From the NCBI GenBank assembly GCA_004296455.1, contig AP018280.1:5568794-5632793 (forward strand): DNA of 64,000 nt. Reading direction: 5' to 3'. The position numbers and the translations under genes were made by a program. The stretch's first letter is position 1. Each line of letters begins with the position of its first letter. Shown piece by piece: positions 6,024 through 13,292 of the stretch. This DNA comes from Calothrix sp. NIES-4101. GTDB lineage: Bacteria; Cyanobacteriota; Cyanobacteriia; Cyanobacteriales; Nostocaceae. Below the pieces are notes generated by a model. It had not been told where the DNA came from. It made no database searches and worked only from the letters and a program-made list of their open reading frames with translations.

Positions 6024-7262
6024 TTGAAAGGGACAATTCTGAGACGAGAGTGGTTTTTTAACACTCGGCAAGACATTATGGCTGGGGCAGTGGTAGGACT
6101 GGCTTTGATTCCAGAAGCGATCGCCTTCTCAATTATTGCTGGGGTTGACCCTAAAGTGGGACTATATACCTCTTTTATTATCGCTGTGATGACCGCATTT
6201 TTTGGGGGTAGACCGGGGGCAATTTCGGCTGCTACTGGTGCAATGGCTTTGTTGATGATTGATTTAGTGAAGCTGCATGGTTTGCAATACCTGCTTGCTG
6301 CTACTTTCCTCACGGGGATAATCCAGGTATTATTTGGTATCTTGAAACTGGGTCGGCAGATGAAATATGTCCCCAGAGCCGTAATGTTAGGATACATCAA
6401 CGCTTTGGCTGTGTTGATTTTTCTGGCGCAGTTGCCCCAACTAATTGGCAAACCCCCCTTAGTATATATTTTAACTGCTATATCTTTGGCAATTATTTAC
6501 ATTCTGCCCCGGTTTACGAAAGCGGTTCCTTCCCCCTTAGTCACTTTAGCAGTTATGACGATCGCAGCGATCGCATTAAAATTAAAAGTCCCTACCGTTG
6601 GGGATATGGGGAAATTACCCACCGCACCCCCTGTATTTGCGTTACCACAAGTTCCCTTCACCTGGGAGACTTTACAGATTATTTTGCCCTATTCTTTGAC
6701 CTTAGCGATTGTTGGTTTATTAGCTTCCTTCCTCACCGCTTCCTTGGTGGATGAACTCACCGATACCCCCAGTGATAAAAATCAAGAAGCTAAAGGTCAA
6801 GGTATCGCTAATATTGTCACCGCTTTTTTTGGCGGGATGGCTGGTTGCGGGATGATTGGACAATCGGTAATTAATGTGCAATCGGGGGGTCGAGGACGCT
6901 TATCAACCCTGTGTGCAGGAATTTTCTTGCTGTTTGCGATTTTAGCCTTGCAAGATTGGGTCAGACAAATGCCGATGGCTGCCCTCGTTGCCATTATGAT
7001 TATGGTGTCCATTGGCACATTTCGCTGGTCATCCTTTAAAGATATTCCCCGGATTCCCCAAAGTGAAACCCTCGTCATGTTAACAACCATGTTTGTGACG
7101 ATTTTTACACGCAATTTTGCCCTGGGTGTGGCAATGGGAATAGTTATGAGTACGGTGTTTTTTAGCCGAAAAATCGCCAAATTGGTGTTTGTGGATAAAG
7201 TATTAAGTGATGATGGCAGCCACCGTATCTATGAATCTATCCCACTAATAAAATTTTATTAA
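6024..7262 (+). pseudogene. SulP-family anion transporter, N-terminal part (interrupted in STAS domain by IS)
   Basis: SulP proteins are inner-membrane transporters or channels for sulfate, bicarbonate or similar anions, with 10-14 helices and a cytoplasmic STAS domain. The start is TTG at 6024 with AGGAGG 4 nt upstream. Family motifs are [19 protein letters not shown] and [17 protein letters not shown] in the first helices, and [20 protein letters not shown] later. Native coding ends at Glu404 (7233-7235); the last eight residues before the stop at 7260-7262 are encoded by the inserted IS. The STAS remainder resumes at 8131. Restored length would be about 488 residues. It is not specifically like BicA, and the substrate is not evident. 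The truncated product keeps all membrane helices but has almost no STAS domain, so it is probably non-functional or deregulated. Confidence 0.88.
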
Positions 7263-7752
7263 TCCAGATATGAATTGTGGCAAGGGAGAGAAAAGCATTG
7301 AAACAAGCTCTAATTCGTTCCCATCGAACAACAAGACGGCGATATTTTCTTTGATACCAGGCGAAACAACGTTCTTGCTGAAAGCGCGGAACAGAAATTT
7401 TAATTGGTCTACCTCGATTTTTTCTATTCTTCCAAACACGCTTGGGCAATTGAGGTCTGATTCCACGTTTACGCAAGGCAGCGCGTTTGTCCTTGGAATC
7501 ATAGCCTTTGTCAGCAGCAAGGACTTTAACTCGTTTACGAGGCCTACCGGGTTTATTCGTTTTGACTTTGACACTATCTAACAGTGGTATCACTTGATCT
7601 CTTTCACTACCGTTGGCTGGAGTTGTGCGATTAGCCAAGGGCATACCATTACCATCAGTCAAGGTATGTATTAAAATTCCCTTACCTTTATGACCGTACT
7701 TAACGCCTTCACCCCCACCTTTTCCAGGGGGAAAAAGACCCATCAACAGCAC
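7237..7752 (-). CDS. IS5-type transposase, ORF B (catalytic DDE part)
   Basis: A 171-residue frame; the real overlap with ORF A begins around LFPPGKGGG. It contains the second catalytic Asp in [11 protein letters not shown] and the Glu region in [15 protein letters not shown], the usual C-terminal signature of DDE_Tnp_1/IS5 enzymes. Its stop codon TAG (7237-7239) is formed by the terminal inverted repeat. It is probably expressed only by frameshift from ORF A. Confidence 0.85.
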
Positions 7753-8071
7753 CGTAATCCCAGTTGATCAGTCCTCTTTCCTCTGCAATCCCTAGTATCC
7801 TTGCTTGCAAACTTTCCAAAGTTCCGTCGGTTTCCCAACGTTGTAACCATCTGTGCGCTGCACTTTTTGATGCCCAGATTTCTCCAGTAGGAGTATCGCA
7901 CCAACGGCATCCTGTTATCAATATACACAATAACGTGTTAAGTACATGACGAAATGGTGCATGAGGCATTCCCCGTCCTCTCTTTTCTGGTTTCTTGGGG
8001 AATATATCTTCAAACAGCTTCCACTCCAGATCACTTAACCCTTCAAATCTCCCAGCCATACCCTGATACAA
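7709..8071 (-). CDS. IS5-type transposase, ORF A (N-terminal part, DUF4096-like)
   Basis: A 120-residue frame containing the N-terminal DNA-binding region of IS5/IS427 transposases: FEGLSDLEWKLFEDIFP, HVLNTLLCILITGCRW and SKSAAHRWLQRWETDG, then the first catalytic Asp in [12 protein letters not shown]. It ends at 7709, inside the start of ORF B. ORF B is in the +1 frame relative to A. Joining them in the run TTTTTCCCCC/GGAAAAGG gives one full transposase of about 275 residues. This arrangement is known for several IS5 subgroups, where frameshifting makes the active enzyme. Confidence 0.85.
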   Translation of the reverse strand: MYQGMAGRFEGLSDLEWKLFEDIFPKKPEKRGRGMPHAPFRHVLNTLLCILITGCRWCDTPTGEIWASKSAAHRWLQRWETDGTLESLQARILGIAEERGLINWDYGAVDGSFSPWKRWG

Positions 8072-8389: not shown

Positions 8390-8638
8390 TTACCCACGAG
8401 AATCGCGTAAATTTGCTAAATTCTCACGCACAGCCACAGTATTAGGATGATTCGCCCCTAAAATTCGCTCCAAAATAGTCAAAGCTTGGAGATACAGGGG
8501 TTCGGCTTGGTCGTACTTTCCTTGGGAATTGTAGAGATATGCCAAGTTGTTGAAGCTGGTGGCGACAAGGAGATGATTATCTCCCAGCAGGCGTTGTCTG
8601 AGTTCTAAAGCTTGGAGATACAGAGGTTCGGCTTGGTC
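8390..8638 (-). pseudogene. C-terminal TPR fragment of the NB-ARC/TPR gene
   Basis: Carries the last TPR units (LGDNHLLVATSFNNLAYLYN, then LGANHPNTVAVRENLANLRD) and the true stop. The apparent ORF extends to 8680, but the segment 8639-8680 belongs to the inserted IS. Excision of the IS joins Asp-Gln-Ala at 10326 to Glu-Pro here in frame. Confidence 0.85.
8630..8638. repeat. Left 9-bp target-site duplication of the 1.68-kb IS
   Basis: GGCTTGGTC at 8630-8638 is repeated exactly at 10318-10326, directly outside the inverted repeats of the IS. The sequence encodes Asp-Gln-Ala of a TPR on the minus strand. Confidence 0.85.
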
Positions 8639-8720
8639 TAGGCTGTTGACTTTGTTGGTTTTAAGGCACCATTGCTTCATACAATAATAGTGTCGTTAAT
8701 ACTTAGCACATTCAAAGCCC

Positions 8721-8972
8721 ATGCAGGAGTTTAAAAGCCCAGTTAGTAGATTAGCACGTTTGTTTCAGAAAGGTCGAGATAACTGGAAAGAAAAAGCACT
8801 ATTAAAACAAAAAAAGATTAGAGCCTTAGAAATCAAGGTTAGAGATCTATTAGATTCAAGAGAAGAATGGAAAAATCGCGCGTTGATGGCAGAGTCAAAA
8901 CTAAAAGAGTTAAACATTGAAGGAGATTTAGACGAAAAAAAGAGGAAATTCAAGTCGAAGCAGAAATCATAG
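8721..8972 (+). CDS. Small basic coiled-coil accessory protein of the IS
   Basis: 83 residues, strongly charged and predicted helical (RLFQKGRDNWKEKALLKQKK, then RALEIKVRDLLDSREEWKNR), ending in a Lys-rich tail. It lies just inside the left end of the IS and stops 5 bp before the transposase start, so translation is probably coupled. The function is not known. DNA binding or assembly of the transposase is a guess from charge and position. Confidence 0.65.
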   Translation: MQEFKSPVSRLARLFQKGRDNWKEKALLKQKKIRALEIKVRDLLDSREEWKNRALMAESKLKELNIEGDLDEKKRKFKSKQKS

Positions 8973-8977
8973 AAGCT

Positions 8978-10279
8978 ATGGAATTAAATGTGAAGGGTCA
9001 TCATTATGATGCCAAAATAATTCAGCAAGCACTCTTACTTTTAATTGAATGTGGTATCAGTTTTAGAGGAGTAGAAAAAGTATTTGAGTTGTTTAATAAT
9101 TATGAAGAGCAGGCAACTCCAAGTTTCAGTTGTGTGAGAAAGTGGTTGGCTCGGATTGGAATATATGAATTGACAAAAGAGAAAGAATATCGTGATGATT
9201 GGATATTTATTGTCGATTTGACATTAGAATTAGGGAAACAAAAAGCGTTGGTAATTTTAGGCGTTTCACAGCAGCATATTGAAGAAAATGTGATGAAGCA
9301 GAAAAGAGGGTTGGCGCATGAAGACGTGAAAATTTTCGGATTAGAAATTATGGATTCTACGAAAGGAGAGATTATAGAATCAAAACTAGAAAAAATCAGT
9401 CAAAAAGTCGGCGTACCAGTACAAATAGTAGCGGACAATGGTAGCGACCTAGCTCGTGGAATCAAGCTATACCAGCAAAATCACCCAGATATTATCTATA
9501 CCCATGATGTGACTCATGCAATGGCTTTACTTTTAAAATACCAGCTAGATTCGGATGAGAGATATCAGTCATTTATTCAAAAATGTAATATCAGCAGACA
9601 AAAATTACAACAAACAGATTTATCATTTTTATCTCCTCCAACACAACGTTCTCAATGTCGTTTTTTTAATGTAGAAAGGTTGACAAATTGGGGGATTAAA
9701 TTACTAAATTCTTCTCCAGACACTTTAATTAAATTAATGCCAGATTCTGACCCTTCGCTGATTACTCAGAAAATAGTAGATAAATTGGGATGGTTAGTTG
9801 ACTACGAATCAGACCTAATTCAATGGAACCAAATGGTGTCACTCACACGAGGTGTTGAAACTCAACTCAAACAATCAGGAATTAGTCATAAAACTCTCGA
9901 TTTTTTTGAACAAAATAAAGTTATATTTGATGATAATTCTCTCCAGAAACTTCAACAAAGTATTTTGGGTTATTTGTCTGTTCAATGCCGAAAAATTAAA
10001 AACCAATCTACTTTTTTAGCTACTTCTGATGTGATTGAGTCATTGTTTGGAAAATATAAGCAATTTTCCGCGCGCTGTCCATTTAAAGAAATGGGTCAGA
10101 TGCTGCTAACCATCTGTTTATCTACTATGAATCTGACGACAGCTTTGATTAAAAACGCACTTGAAACAATTAGTTTTTCAGACGTTGAAGCATGGCTATC
10201 TGAAGTTTTTGGTCAATCCACACTATCAAAACGAAAAACGTTGTTTTCAGGGGATTGTGACGACATTAAAAGTGCATGA
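8978..10279 (+). CDS. DDE-type transposase of unassigned family
   Basis: 433 residues. The N-terminal part has helix-turn-helix character (ALLLLIECGISFRGVEKVFE, FSCVRKWLARIGIYELTKEK). Candidate RNase H-fold acidic residues are Asp in DWIFIVDLTLELGKQ, Asp in VQIVADNGSDLARGI and Glu in TSDVIESLFGKYKQFS, in DDE order and spacing. It is intact with no frameshift. It follows an 83-residue accessory gene by 5 bp. The two-gene composition and 9-bp target duplication may help place it once compared with ISfinder. Confidence 0.8.
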   Translation: MELNVKGHHYDAKIIQQALLLLIECGISFRGVEKVFELFNNYEEQATPSFSCVRKWLARIGIYELTKEKEYRDDWIFIVDLTLELGKQKALVILGVSQQHIEENVMKQKRGLAHEDVKIFGLEIMDSTKGEIIESKLEKISQKVGVPVQIVADNGSDLARGIKLYQQNHPDIIYTHDVTHAMALLLKYQLDSDERYQSFIQKCNISRQKLQQTDLSFLSPPTQRSQCRFFNVERLTNWGIKLLNSSPDTLIKLMPDSDPSLITQKIVDKLGWLVDYESDLIQWNQMVSLTRGVETQLKQSGISHKTLDFFEQNKVIFDDNSLQKLQQSILGYLSVQCRKIKNQSTFLATSDVIESLFGKYKQFSARCPFKEMGQMLLTICLSTMNLTTALIKNALETISFSDVEAWLSEVFGQSTLSKRKTLFSGDCDDIKSA

Positions 10280-10317
10280 ACTTTTACCATGTCAAAAGGC
10301 ACAGAGTCAACAGCCTA

Positions 10318-10965
10318 GGCTTGGTCGTACTTTCCTTGGGAATTGTAGAGATATGCCAAGTTGTTGAGGCTGGTGGCGACTGAGGGATGATTGTCTCCCA
10401 GCAGGCGTTGTTTGAGTTCTAAAGCTTGGAGTAAAAGGGGTGCGGCTTGGTCGTACTTTCCTTGGTAAGTGTAGAGTAATGCCAAGTTGTTGAGGCTGGT
10501 GGCGACATCGGGATGATTGTCTCCCAGCAGGCGTTGTCTGAGTTCTAAAGCTTGGATACACAGGGGTGCGGCTTGGTCGTACTTTCCTTGGGATTCGTAG
10601 AGTCCAGCCAAGTTGTTAAGGCTAGTGGCGACTGAGGGATGATTGTCTCCCAGCAGGCGTTTATGGAGTTCTAAAGCTTGAAGATACAAGGGTTCTGCTT
10701 GGTCGTACTTTCCTTGAGAGTAGTAGAGATATGCCAAGTTGTTGAGGCTTTGGGCAACATCGAGATGATTGTCTCCCAGCAGGCGTTGTCTGAGTTCTAA
10801 AGCTTGGATACACAGGGGTTCGGCTTGGTCGTATTTTCCTTGGGAATAGTAGAGTAATGCCAAGTTGTTGAGGCTGGTGGCGACTGAGGGATGATTATCT
10901 CCCAAGCGGTTTTGTACTGTTGATAAACACTGTTGATTCCAAGGTTCGGCTTGGGTATATAACCC
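10318..10965 (-). repeat. Tandem 126-bp TPR-encoding repeats
   Basis: About five units of 126 bp (42 codons), with conserved blocks such as ttggtcgtactttccttgg and ccaagttgttgaggct on the plus strand; the array continues past the IS at 8390-8638. Units differ mainly at the third residue of the LAxLY motif and in the loop. Confidence 0.85.
10955..10965. repeat. 11-bp target-site duplication, left copy (MITE)
   Basis: GTATATAACCC at 10955-10965 is repeated exactly at 11144-11154, directly flanking the 178-bp element. Confidence 0.88.
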
Positions 10966-11143
10966 TACCCCTGTTAAGGTGAACATTTGTACTGACGATT
11001 TATAGGGGTTTCAGCACCGCATCCATTAAAAATTGAAGGCAAAAAATAATGCTTGCGTTAAAAATTTAGGTTCTGCGATTAGAGGTAGAACGTAAGAATG
11101 GGACTTCTGGCTAGTACATTATTGGTACACCTTAACAGGGGTA
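10966..11143. mobile_element. 178-bp MITE with 16-bp terminal inverted repeats
   Basis: Ends TACCCCTGTTAAGGTG (10966-10981) and its exact complement (11128-11143), with a shared subterminal GTAC motif further in. The 11-bp direct repeat GTATATAACCC flanks both ends. It encodes nothing itself, but on the minus strand it supplies both the stop that ends the NB-ARC frame (TAA at 11119-11121) and the ATG (10986) that opens the TPR frame. Element plus one duplication is 189 bp, a multiple of three. A target duplication of 11 bp fits IS4-type elements, so a parent of that type is a reasonable guess. Confidence 0.88.
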
Positions 11144-12339
11144 GTATATAACCCTTGTCCTTCATAAAATCTGCCTAAGCCGAGGAAATGCTTAATTAAA
11201 TCTTCATCACTGACATATTCAATCAGATTATTTGCTACTTCAGCTATGTGTGGTATTGCAAGAGAAACAGCGTTAATTTTTTCAAGTGTAGGAGTCTCAG
11301 GAATTTCTTTAGCAACTGCTACCATTACCTGACAAAACGATCGCTTAAATTCCTCTACTTGCTCTAAACTTGTAAACTTAGATTGGAAAAATTCCCGCAG
11401 TAAGGGATGTAGTTGATAGATTCCCTCTTCTTTGCGCTGGAGTAAATGCAGATTCAATAATTTATCATCCCGAATGTCTTCTAACTCATCCTCATCTTTA
11501 TCTGTGAAGCACTGTTCTACTAAGTTCCAGGGTATGGGTGCGGCGGCAAATAAACTGAGTATACAGCCTAATTGTTTGTCATCCTCTGCTAATTCCTGCC
11601 AACTCAACTCAAAGGCGGCTTGCACTCCCCTTTGTGCTGTCATATCTGCTTCTGGTTTTACAAGTGCAGGTTGTTCTAATCGCTTTTTCTCCAAACGCTG
11701 CATCATTTCCCATAGGGACAAATCCGGTTTCCGCGCCAGATATCGCCCCACCAACTCCAAACCTAAAGGCAAATACCCCAGCCATGCACACAACTGTTTT
11801 GCTACATCTAATTCTCTCTCAATTCGCCCTGGTGTTTCTGCTAGCAAAGACCGTAACAACTCCAAGGCTGCATCTGGTTGTAATACATCCAAAGATAATT
11901 GCTTGATAGCTACACCCAACTTTTTGCGGGTAGTCATCAACACTTTAAATCTGGAAGATGCGCCCTGTAGGTAAGGTCTGATTTGCTGGTAATCTGTAAC
12001 ATCATCCACCACCACCAGCACATTACCCTCACGCCAATTCCGCCAGCAGTATTGTACTTGTGCAGGTAAATCAAATTCTTCTGGTGGCTTTAAATCAAGC
12101 TGAGTTCTGGCAAACCGCACCACTTGAACGCCAAAATCCTCAACTTTCGCCTGTAACCAGCACAGTCCACCTTGGTAGTTTTCGCGCTGAGTCATGGCAT
12201 ATTGCAAGGCGAGTTCTGTTTTACCCAGTCCACCCATTCCCAAAATAGCCGCAATGGCTACTTGGTTGTTTTCCTGCAATAGTTTGTGGAGTTCTTCCAG
12301 TTCTTCATCACGTCCGACAAATTTGACTACCCCACTCAA
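11119..12339 (-). pseudogene. NB-ARC ATPase part of the NB-ARC/TPR gene
   Basis: 406 codons open from TTG at 12339, in the same frame as the N-terminal fragment. NB-ARC motifs are visible: N-terminal FVGRDEELEELHKLL, Walker A AILGMGGLGKTELALQYA, Walker B NVLVVVDDVTDY, RNBS-like FKVLMTTRKKLG, GLPL-type YLPLGLELVGRYLA, and the MHD-like region LHPLLREFFQSKF. This is the nucleotide-dependent switch of NLR-like proteins. The last 12 codons (from 11154 down) run into the MITE. It could still be made as a separate protein from the TTG, but no ribosome-binding site is obvious, so loss of function is more likely. Confidence 0.85.
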
Positions 12340-12399
12340 GGGTAAATTTTGCGGTATTTCAGGCTTTGACTTTACCCGTTCCTGTTCGGGCGACTGTAG

Positions 12400-12858
12400 T
12401 CAGTTGTATGTGTTGTGCTGTTCCCGAATTGTGATTTGTTGGGCAACCATTGCCCCTTTTTCAGCTTGGATACTTTCTGCTAACTTGGCAAAGTTATTAA
12501 CAATTGCTGGTTGCGCTTGAATTTCTGCGGCTAATTTTTGAATTTCCTCAGCCTTGGGGGATTCATCTTGATTAACTGTTGCTTCTACTTCCCACACTGA
12601 TTGGGCAATTTCGGTATCTGTATCGGCTGCGGCTTTCAACTCCAACACCGCTTGACCATAATCTAACCGTTCCTGTGCGTTTTCCTGTGACGTATTCGCT
12701 AACAAGGGCAGTTTATTTTTCTGGCGTAGCTTTGCGATTAACTCGTTACTTTTTTCTAATGCTGCTTCCCCCAGCTTTTCGCCTGTTTTTTCTAAAGCCT
12801 TAGTTAAAACTATAGTCGCGATCGCAGTTCCTACCGCTGTTAGTGTTACTGGTTCCAT
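12400..12858 (-). pseudogene. N-terminal helical domain of the NB-ARC/TPR gene, ended by an in-frame TGA
   Basis: 152 residues. It begins with a hydrophobic stretch followed by a helix (MEPVTLTAVGTAIATIVLTK, then ALEKTGEKLGEAALEKSNEL), continues with an Ala/Glu-rich region and ends KGAMVAQQITIREQHNTYN. The TGA at 12402-12400 is in the same reading frame as the NB-ARC part, and sequence between the two (LQSPEQERVKSKPEIPQNLP) reads as a normal linker. This type of N-terminal domain is often seen on cyanobacterial STAND proteins and is a possible membrane-acting effector. A sequencing error or stop readthrough cannot be excluded. Confidence 0.78.
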
Positions 12859-13292
12859 AAATAAATAATAATATTACGAGATTATACTTATATTCCTCAG
12901 CATAACAGCTTCTCAATATAGAAAAAAGCACAAGTTATGAAGCCTACAGTGTATGCACAAGTTTAAACAACACTAATTTCTTTGGTGCGTTACGGTTGAC
13001 ACTTACAGGCATGAGAATTAGCATCTGCCGTGATTCAGTGATATCTTTTTATCATTAGCTGTAATTAGCTCCCAAGTATAGTAATGCCATTATTTTGACA
13101 AGACGCAGGCATACTTAAACACAAACCCAGAAAACTCTCGATAAAAAAGCAGTAGACTTTTCCATACTTGTAGAGAGCAAGCTGGGCAAGTAAATTATTT
13201 GTGATTAAAAATACTTAAATACCTATCATTGGACAGATGCGTTTCTATTGGTTGTTAATGTGATACTCTAGTAGGAGGGGAATCAACACCGA
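12859..13292. other. Intergenic region
   Basis: AT-rich, no coding sequence recognised. It should hold the promoter of the NB-ARC/TPR gene (leftward) and of the small-ORF/aroQ unit (rightward). Confidence 0.4.

What the first reader, a model, noticed from the sequence alone, without database searches (positions are those of the whole stretch)
10955..11154. A 178-bp MITE with exact 11-bp target duplication inside an NB-ARC/TPR gene
The element has 16-bp perfect terminal inverted repeats (TACCCCTGTTAAGGTG) and GTATATAACCC on both sides. Removing it with one duplication copy (189 bp) restores the frame and a family-like sequence, Glu-Gly-Gln-Gly-Leu-Tyr-Thr-Gln-Ala-Glu. It is non-coding, so it must be moved by another element's transposase. 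An 11-bp duplication suggests an IS4-type parent. On the minus strand it also supplies both a stop and a new in-frame ATG, so it splits one gene into two apparently clean ORFs.
Basis: partly seen in the sequence, partly recalled or inferred. Interest (0 to 1): 0.72.

Follow-up and report, generated by a model that had tools for sequence, protein, structure and literature searches.

The report
Cross-mobilised MITE splitting a cyanobacterial NLR gene
A 178-letter jumping DNA fragment that carries no gene of its own has copied itself 14 times around a cyanobacterial genome, most likely by borrowing the enzyme of a larger element with the same ends, and here it has cut an immune-receptor-like gene in two; that gene belongs to a family with a conserved stop signal and RNA hairpin in its middle, which is the more surprising observation.

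Summary
A 178-bp element (10966-11143) with perfect 16-bp terminal inverted repeats lies between exact 11-bp duplications inside an NB-ARC/TPR gene of a Nostocales-type cyanobacterium. The genome holds 14 identical copies, all 14 with 10-12 bp duplications, plus 2 diverged ones. The proposed parent exists: nine 1646-bp elements with the same ends and 10-11 bp duplications encode a 478-aa IS4-like transposase. The 7 nearest homologues have an uninterrupted site. This is an ordinary MITE, probably moved in trans: a new member of a known kind. Two details are unusual: the transposase group has Ser/Thr where the IS4 signature has Lys, and one MITE and one IS sit head to tail on one 10-bp target present three times. 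Following the host gene led to something more interesting: its NB-ARC half is preceded, in frame, by a UGA that closes a 152-aa ORF. In 102 of 103 related sites the codon before the conserved block is UGA, and a hairpin with compensatory changes lies just after it. Programmed UGA readthrough in bacterial NLR genes is my reading; it is untested.

The parts
10966..11143 (.). 178-bp MITE, one of 14 identical copies in the genome
10966..10981 (+). left terminal inverted repeat TACCCCTGTTAAGGTG
11128..11143 (-). right terminal inverted repeat, same 16-mer on the minus strand
10955..10965 (.). target duplication GTATATAACCC, left copy
11144..11154 (.). target duplication GTATATAACCC, right copy
11119..11121 (-). 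TAA stop inside the MITE that ends the NB-ARC half
10984..10986 (-). ATG inside the MITE, in frame, that opens the TPR half
11119..12399 (-). NB-ARC half of the host gene (open frame directly after the UGA)
   Evidence: Pfam NB-ARC 63.8 bits
10315..10986 (-). TPR half of the host gene
   Evidence: Pfam TPR_12 279.5 bits
8639..10317 (.). second insertion in the same gene: 1679 bp, ends TAGGCTGTTGACT, 9-bp duplication GGCTTGGTC (8630-8638 and 10318-10326), 83- and 433-aa ORFs; the 433-aa ORF has no Pfam or NCBIfam match at E 0.001 (the 83-aa ORF was not searched)
8390..8680 (-). ORF holding the last TPR piece of the host gene; its first residues lie in the second insertion
12400..12858 (-). 152-aa ORF upstream of and in frame with the NB-ARC half; predicted helical domain, ends in the UGA
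12364..12402 (-). 39-nt UGA-hairpin element; UGA at 12400-12402; the one match of model R1 in this genome at E up to 0.1

Best explanation
The 178 bp are a non-autonomous miniature inverted-repeat transposable element. It carries the same 16-19 bp terminal inverted repeats as a 1646-bp IS4-like insertion sequence in the same genome, whose 478-aa DDE transposase binds those ends, cuts the element out and joins it to a new site with a 10-12 bp stagger; repair leaves the duplication. Shown: element, ends, duplications, copies, parent, empty site in homologues. Inferred: that this transposase does the moving, and that the movement is cut-and-paste. The MITE body is not a deletion derivative of the present IS, so the MITE was probably built from other DNA flanked by two such ends, or descends from a lost relative; it belongs to a wider MITE family in related genera. 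The 14 identical copies suggest a recent burst from one source (inference). Here it broke an NB-ARC/TPR gene.
For: 14 identical copies, 14 of 14 with 10-12 bp duplications. The 16-mer occurs 25 times on each strand of the genome, the reversed control 0 times. Nine 1646-bp elements share the ends, differ by 0-2 bases from the first, and 9 of 9 have 10-11 bp duplications; each encodes the 478-aa ORF without stops. The ORF matches NF033592 IS4 (112.3 bits) and Pfam DDE_Tnp_1; D133, D203 and E310 (positions; roles by alignment and the definition in PMC2266710, passages) have IS4-family spacing. MITE and IS targets are alike: pooled over both strands the outermost base is G at 18 of 28 MITE and 12 of 18 IS ends, background G 0.20. 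A MITE and an IS share one 10-bp target, present three times. The empty site is gap-free in the 7 nearest homologues.
Against: MITE and IS share only about 19-25 bp at the ends, so derivation from this IS is not shown. No transposition was observed. In the same-genus genomes the IS is present in G002 (97-99% identical, in two frames, i.e. broken) without the MITE, and G001 has only a 75% MITE with a degraded IS. In G014 and G020 MITE relatives occur without a close transposase: G014's only match is a 51-residue fragment, E 8.7e-5, and G020 has none.
Confidence: 0.93

Rival explanations
1. The MITE is an internal-deletion (type I) derivative of the present 1646-bp IS.
For: Same ends; the right end of the MITE matches one IS end over 25 bp at 92%.
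Against: Beyond the ends, blastn with word size 7 gave only matches of 8-16 bp at E 0.12 or worse; MITE bodies are related to each other across genera.
Confidence: 0.05
2. The 178 bp are kept by selection as a structured RNA or regulatory element rather than spreading selfishly.
For: The strand folds much better than shuffles (z -7.5 as RNA on the plus strand, -5.6 on the minus strand).
Against: The inverted repeats supply the longest helix; in 11 family members the body shows little covariation (3 of 35 pairs with a both-sided change, 2 of them in the terminal repeats; covariation term -0.59). No Rfam match up to E 1 in 10500-11600. Several copies lie within long open frames.
Confidence: 0.03
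3. The MITE is moved by an unrelated transposase that happens to recognise the same ends.
For: The MITE family occurs in genomes without a detected close transposase (G014, G020).
Against: In this genome a multicopy transposon has identical ends, similar duplication length and similar target preference.
Confidence: 0.03

Closest known systems
Prokaryotic MITEs, type II in the sense of PMC10969869 (passages read)
   Same: Short, non-coding, terminal inverted repeats, target duplications, multicopy; similarity to the autonomous element confined to the ends.
   Different: Nothing of principle; here the autonomous partner is present in the same genome in nearly identical copies.
MITEs of Anabaena sp. 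90 (PMC3542288, passages read)
   Same: Nostocales, 77-541 bp, inverted repeats, 15 of 147 inside disrupted ORFs.
   Different: There the authors report no evident similarity with the inverted repeats of that genome's ISs; here nine ISs with the same ends are found.
IS4 family (PMC2266710, passages including Table 1 read)
   Same: Single-ORF DDE transposase, D-D-E spacing, duplications of about 10 bp, size.
   Different: The Lys of YREK is Ser here, Ser or Thr in the close and middle relatives that cover it (four distant ones at 22-27% have Lys); ends TACCCC match no subgroup consensus listed in Table 1.
For the host gene: BASS/BELL amyloid NLR pairs (PMC7889193, passages read; the primary paper was not held)
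   Same: A small helical domain with a variable C-terminal tail is encoded next to an NB-ARC NLR in filamentous cyanobacteria.
   Different: The two ORFs are in one frame, separated only by a UGA with a conserved hairpin, and the NLR half has only a short leader without a copy of the tail.

Membership tests
MITE | short (50-500 bp) non-coding element with terminal inverted repeats | tested here: met
   178 bp, 16-bp perfect repeats, longest open stretch 30 codons
MITE | target-site duplications | tested here: met
   14 of 14 identical copies, 10-12 bp; of the 2 diverged copies one has 11 bp, one none
MITE | multiple copies and a related autonomous element | tested here: met
   14 copies, 9 full IS
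MITE | mobilisation in trans by the IS transposase | not testable with these tools
   needs a transposition assay
Type I MITE of this IS | interior sequence shared with the autonomous element | tested here: not met
   similarity only at the ends; fits type II
IS4 family | single transposase ORF with D(60-110)D(100-150)E | tested here: met
   D133, D203, E310 in a 478-aa ORF
IS4 family | Y(2)R(3)E(6)K signature | tested here: not met
   Y303, R306 and E310 present; position 317 is Ser; Thr in L070, L073, L074, L075, L087, L130, L137, L138; Ser in L071, L136, L139; Lys in the distant L081, L082, L083, L085. Filed as IS4-like only.
IS4 family | direct repeats of about one helix turn (7-13 bp in Table 1 of PMC2266710) | tested here: met
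   10-11 bp in 9 of 9
IS4 family | NCBIfam curated cut-off | tested here: not met
   NF033592 112.3 bits, cut-off 115
Selenocysteine insertion (considered for the host-gene UGA) | tRNA-Sec and SelB in the genome | tested here: not met
   no RF01852 match over cut-off among 8 candidates; the 4 of 8 whose loci were read are ordinary tRNAs; no TIGR00475 match over cut-off among 13. The genome may be incomplete.
BASS/BELL two-gene amyloid NLR (considered for the host gene) | shared amyloid motif at the C-terminus of the effector and the N-terminus of the NLR | tested here: inconclusive
   upstream tails fall into a few recurrent N/G/T-rich types but were not scored as amyloid; the leaders after the UGA, read by eye, carry no copy of the tail

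The most novel reading that the evidence does not exclude
The gene that the MITE hit belongs to a large family of cyanobacterial receptor genes in which a small helical domain plus a variable tail is joined, in frame, to NB-ARC and other domains through a UGA stop codon followed by a conserved RNA hairpin (which may extend to take in the UGA). The hairpin makes ribosomes read through the UGA at some rate, so one gene yields both the free effector and an effector-tail-NLR fusion that share one tail.
Probability: 0.7. Interest if true: 0.85.

Novelty: new member of a known kind. Interest (0 to 1): 0.5.

Why it matters
The MITE pairs a non-autonomous element with its probable helper in one genome, with enough identical copies to define ends, targets and duplications; the Anabaena sp. 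90 MITEs were reported without such a partner (PMC3542288, passages). The transposase group (YRE plus Ser/Thr, with 10-11 bp duplications in the copies measured here) does not fit the published pattern in which the three groups that depart from YREK have duplications of around 5 bp (PMC2266710, passages). The host-gene observation would matter more: programmed stop-codon readthrough in bacterial NLR-like genes would set effector-to-receptor stoichiometry from a single gene, and would mean that annotation splits members of this family, as on the Nostoc sp. C057 plasmid.

Tried and rejected
Internal deletion of the IS as the MITE's origin: rejected on sequence. Native linker or coding sequence: rejected. 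Rfam element in or near the MITE: none up to E 1. MITE in the PLSDB plasmids: no match at E 1e-5. Conserved internal RNA structure of the MITE: not supported. Host proteins in PADLOC: matches only for the TPR half, none for the NB-ARC or upstream ORF. Pfam for upstream ORFs: nothing over a gathering score in the 6 tested at E 0.1. Fold of the upstream 152-aa domain: AlphaFold mean pLDDT 65.6, helices, low-confidence tail; Foldseek against PDB gave nothing at E 0.001, so no homologue is claimed. Rfam over 12250-12900: two matches up to E 10, both below gathering score. Single-sequence folding of the UGA element gave z between -1.4 and +0.9 against mononucleotide shuffles for the 12 sites shown, so the case for the hairpin rests on covariation, not stability. 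In the first nine codons after the UGA pN/pS is above 1 in the two larger groups (1.42 and 2.29; 0.84 in a pair), i.e. no protein-level constraint there, partly because sites were chosen by that stretch; further on it is 0.65 and 0.27, and 0.93 in the pair. 68 of 92 sites have a GTG or TTG before the FVGR motif, so reinitiation is not excluded for those.

Full report
OBSERVATION. Its 178 bp recur 14 times at 100% identity in the window's genome (7.59 Mb, 6 contigs), on contigs C1, C2 and C4, and twice at 74-76%. All 14 have a 10-12 bp direct repeat abutting TACCCC...GGGGTA, which settles the boundary. Of the two diverged copies one has an 11-bp duplication, the other none.

PARENT. The 16-mer end occurs 25 times on each strand, the reversed control never. 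The 50 occurrences fall into 14 identical MITEs (28), nine 1646-bp elements (18), the diverged MITE L015 (2), and two single ends: the diverged MITE L016 and, on contig C5, a tenth IS copy (protein 99% identical) with one exact end. The nine 1646-bp elements differ by 0-2 bases from the first and all nine have 10-11 bp duplications. They encode a 478-aa protein that matches NCBIfam IS4 (NF033592, 112.3 bits, cut-off 115) and Pfam DDE_Tnp_1 (30 bits, cut-off 23). Catalytic spacing fits IS4. The Y-R-E part of the signature is present, but the Lys position is Ser here; among relatives aligned there it is Thr in eight and Ser in three, and Lys in four distant ones. PMC2266710 (passages with Table 1) makes the full YREK and ~10-bp repeats go together, so I call it IS4-like and not a confirmed IS4 member.

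MITE VERSUS IS. Beyond 19 bp (25 bp at 92% for one pairing) blastn found nothing significant between MITE and IS. The MITE body does have relatives: 6 of 60 genomes searched, own genome included, have a match, two of them (G031, G050) only at the ends. The nearest copy read is in another genus of the same family (G249, L123: 6 differences in 178 by eye); it has no duplication. By the definition in PMC10969869 (passages) it is type II. The 16-mer is present in 27 of 388 genomes of the order, 18 of 150 genera; the reversed control was seen once, in G249. MITE-sized pairs of 177-200 bp occur in G249, G256, G246, G153 and G299; 5 of the 7 read have a 10-11 bp duplication, 2 (L123, L129) none.

TARGETS. 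The outermost duplicated base is G at 18 of 28 MITE ends and 12 of 18 IS ends, both strands pooled, background 0.20. At 821832-823665 of contig C1 an IS and a MITE lie head to tail with GTCTATAGCC before, between and after: two insertions into the same target, or one insertion into the other's duplication.

EMPTY SITE AND HOST GENE. With one duplication kept, the two halves read through EGQGLYTQAE. Of 19 homologous loci fetched by protein similarity (the best of matches in 49 of 60 genomes), 17 align across the junction without an insert; 13 are gap-free, including the 7 nearest, and 4 have one or two gaps; L097 did not cover it and L108 gave an unrelated match, although my script's own flag counted it as spanning. 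The MITE gives the stop and the new ATG. The TPR half is cut again at 8639-10317 by a 1679-bp element with a 9-bp duplication, so the gene is broken at least twice.

THE UGA. The NB-ARC frame starts directly after a TGA CTA that ends a 152-aa ORF in the same frame. Of the 7 nearest homologues 6 share the TGA (5 with CTA, L095 with CTG); L096 does not. To test whether the TGA itself is conserved I searched 217 genomes of the family with a 24-nt block that lies after the TGA and does not include it, up to 3 mismatches: 76 genomes matched. I read every place listed there through the loci: 112 loci, some of them the same place, which reduce to 103 distinct 120-nt contexts. The preceding codon is TGA in 102 of 103; the exception (GCG, L219) has 3 open codons before and 54 after and looks like a chance match. 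By motif, 93 of the 103 are followed by an NB-ARC-like frame. Of the ten others one is L219 and one (L189) has a stop after one codon; of the remaining eight I ran Pfam on two: L177 is NB-ARC and L160 is CHASE2. 101 of the 102 have an upstream frame of 100 or more codons; the other, L191, reaches the contig end after 69.

A control independent of the DNA pattern: of the 20 loci found by protein similarity (own included), 9 have TGA directly before a short leader with an in-frame upstream frame of 142-157 codons (L089-L095, L098, L104); of the other 11, 9 have an ATG as first start before the P-loop.

THE HAIRPIN. The 76 distinct 39-mers form UGACU/AGU(C/U)A around GCCCG/CGGGU: 97.0% of 760 cells are paired, against 95.0% in column shuffles and at most 45.1% in slid controls. 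There are 22 both-side-changed cells against 6.1 expected, and the covariation score is 0.226 against 0.184; 0 of 500 shuffles reach any of these three. The number of pairs with a both-sided change (2) and of further pair types (9) do not exceed the shuffles (416 and 468 of 500); the tool warns that related sequences can exceed shuffles without structure. RNAalifold keeps only the inner helix. The outer helix, which would contain the UGA, varies on one side only and has 1-8 unpaired cells per pair. A covariance model found 29 matches at E up to 0.1 in 60 relatives, 16 of 60 genomes, with stricter filters that lose weak matches (it missed L098's genome G053). 28 of 29 start with TGA in frame with open frames of 134-198 codons before and 146-513 after; the exception is the truncated L287. 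The model contains the TGA, so this is weaker evidence for it. Element lengths of 39 and 42 nt (8 of the 29 are 42), and the shorter form in L098 read by eye, differ by multiples of three, as expected if the stretch is translated. In the window's genome the model matches once: in the gene the MITE has split.

READING OF THE UGA. For translation through it: identity of the stop codon, frame continuity, a hairpin just 3' of the stop as in known readthrough stimulators (recalled), no ATG/GTG/TTG between UGA and FVGR in 24 of 92 sites and no ATG in any of the 92. Against: no expression data; 68 of 92 sites have a GTG or TTG that could serve reinitiation, and 4 of the 29 model matches (L278, L283, L284, L290, downstream parts not of the FVGR type) have an ATG 17-23 codons after the UGA; the first codons are constrained as RNA rather than as protein. 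Selenocysteine is unlikely: no tRNA-Sec and no SelB over cut-off. The upstream domain is a predicted helical bundle of modest confidence with a low-confidence tail, with no PDB match at E 0.001. Its likeness to the BELL domain of BASS pairs rests on passages of PMC7889193 and on position, not on a profile.

LITERATURE. For the MITE, searches were searched (listings). For the UGA element, the listings showed no title or abstract start that describes it, and Rfam 15 has no family at the site above gathering score. The primary BASS paper was not held, so I cannot say that it is unreported. RefSeq annotates one homologue on a named plasmid (Nostoc sp. C057 p057_C) as two genes, the NB-ARC gene starting 88 bases after the last base of the UGA that ends the hypothetical protein.

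VERDICT. The finding as given is correct and ordinary: a MITE and its probable helper. I put the MITE alone at about 0.3; the overall interest of 0.5 reflects the host-gene observation, which deserves its own examination.

Noticed in passing
window 12364-12402 (minus); homologous sites in L089-L095 and L141-L292: Conserved in-frame UGA with a covarying hairpin joins a small helical-domain ORF to NB-ARC and other domains; 102 of 103 sites have TGA although TGA was not in the search pattern.
   Followed up: partly
genome contig C1, 821832-823665 (L047, L011): An IS and a MITE head to tail with the same 10-bp target three times.
   Followed up: partly
window 8639-10317: 1679-bp insertion with ends TAGGCTGTTGACT and a 9-bp duplication in the same host gene; its 433-aa ORF has no Pfam or NCBIfam match at E 0.001, so possibly an uncatalogued transposase.
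   Followed up: partly
478-aa transposase and relatives L070, L073, L074, L075, L087, L130, L137, L138, L139: A group with Ser/Thr at the Lys of YREK; the own-genome copies have 10-11 bp duplications.
   Followed up: partly
L068 (G014): A MITE relative whose two ends carry matching changes (TACGGC...GCCGTA) and a 10-bp duplication, i.e. ends that changed together.
   Followed up: no
L160 (G409): The same UGA junction is followed by a CHASE2 domain instead of NB-ARC, suggesting domain shuffling at the junction.
   Followed up: no
window 7237-8071: ORFs that look like the two parts of an IS5-type transposase beside the end of a SulP-like transporter ORF (family names recalled from the sequences, not searched).
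   Followed up: no
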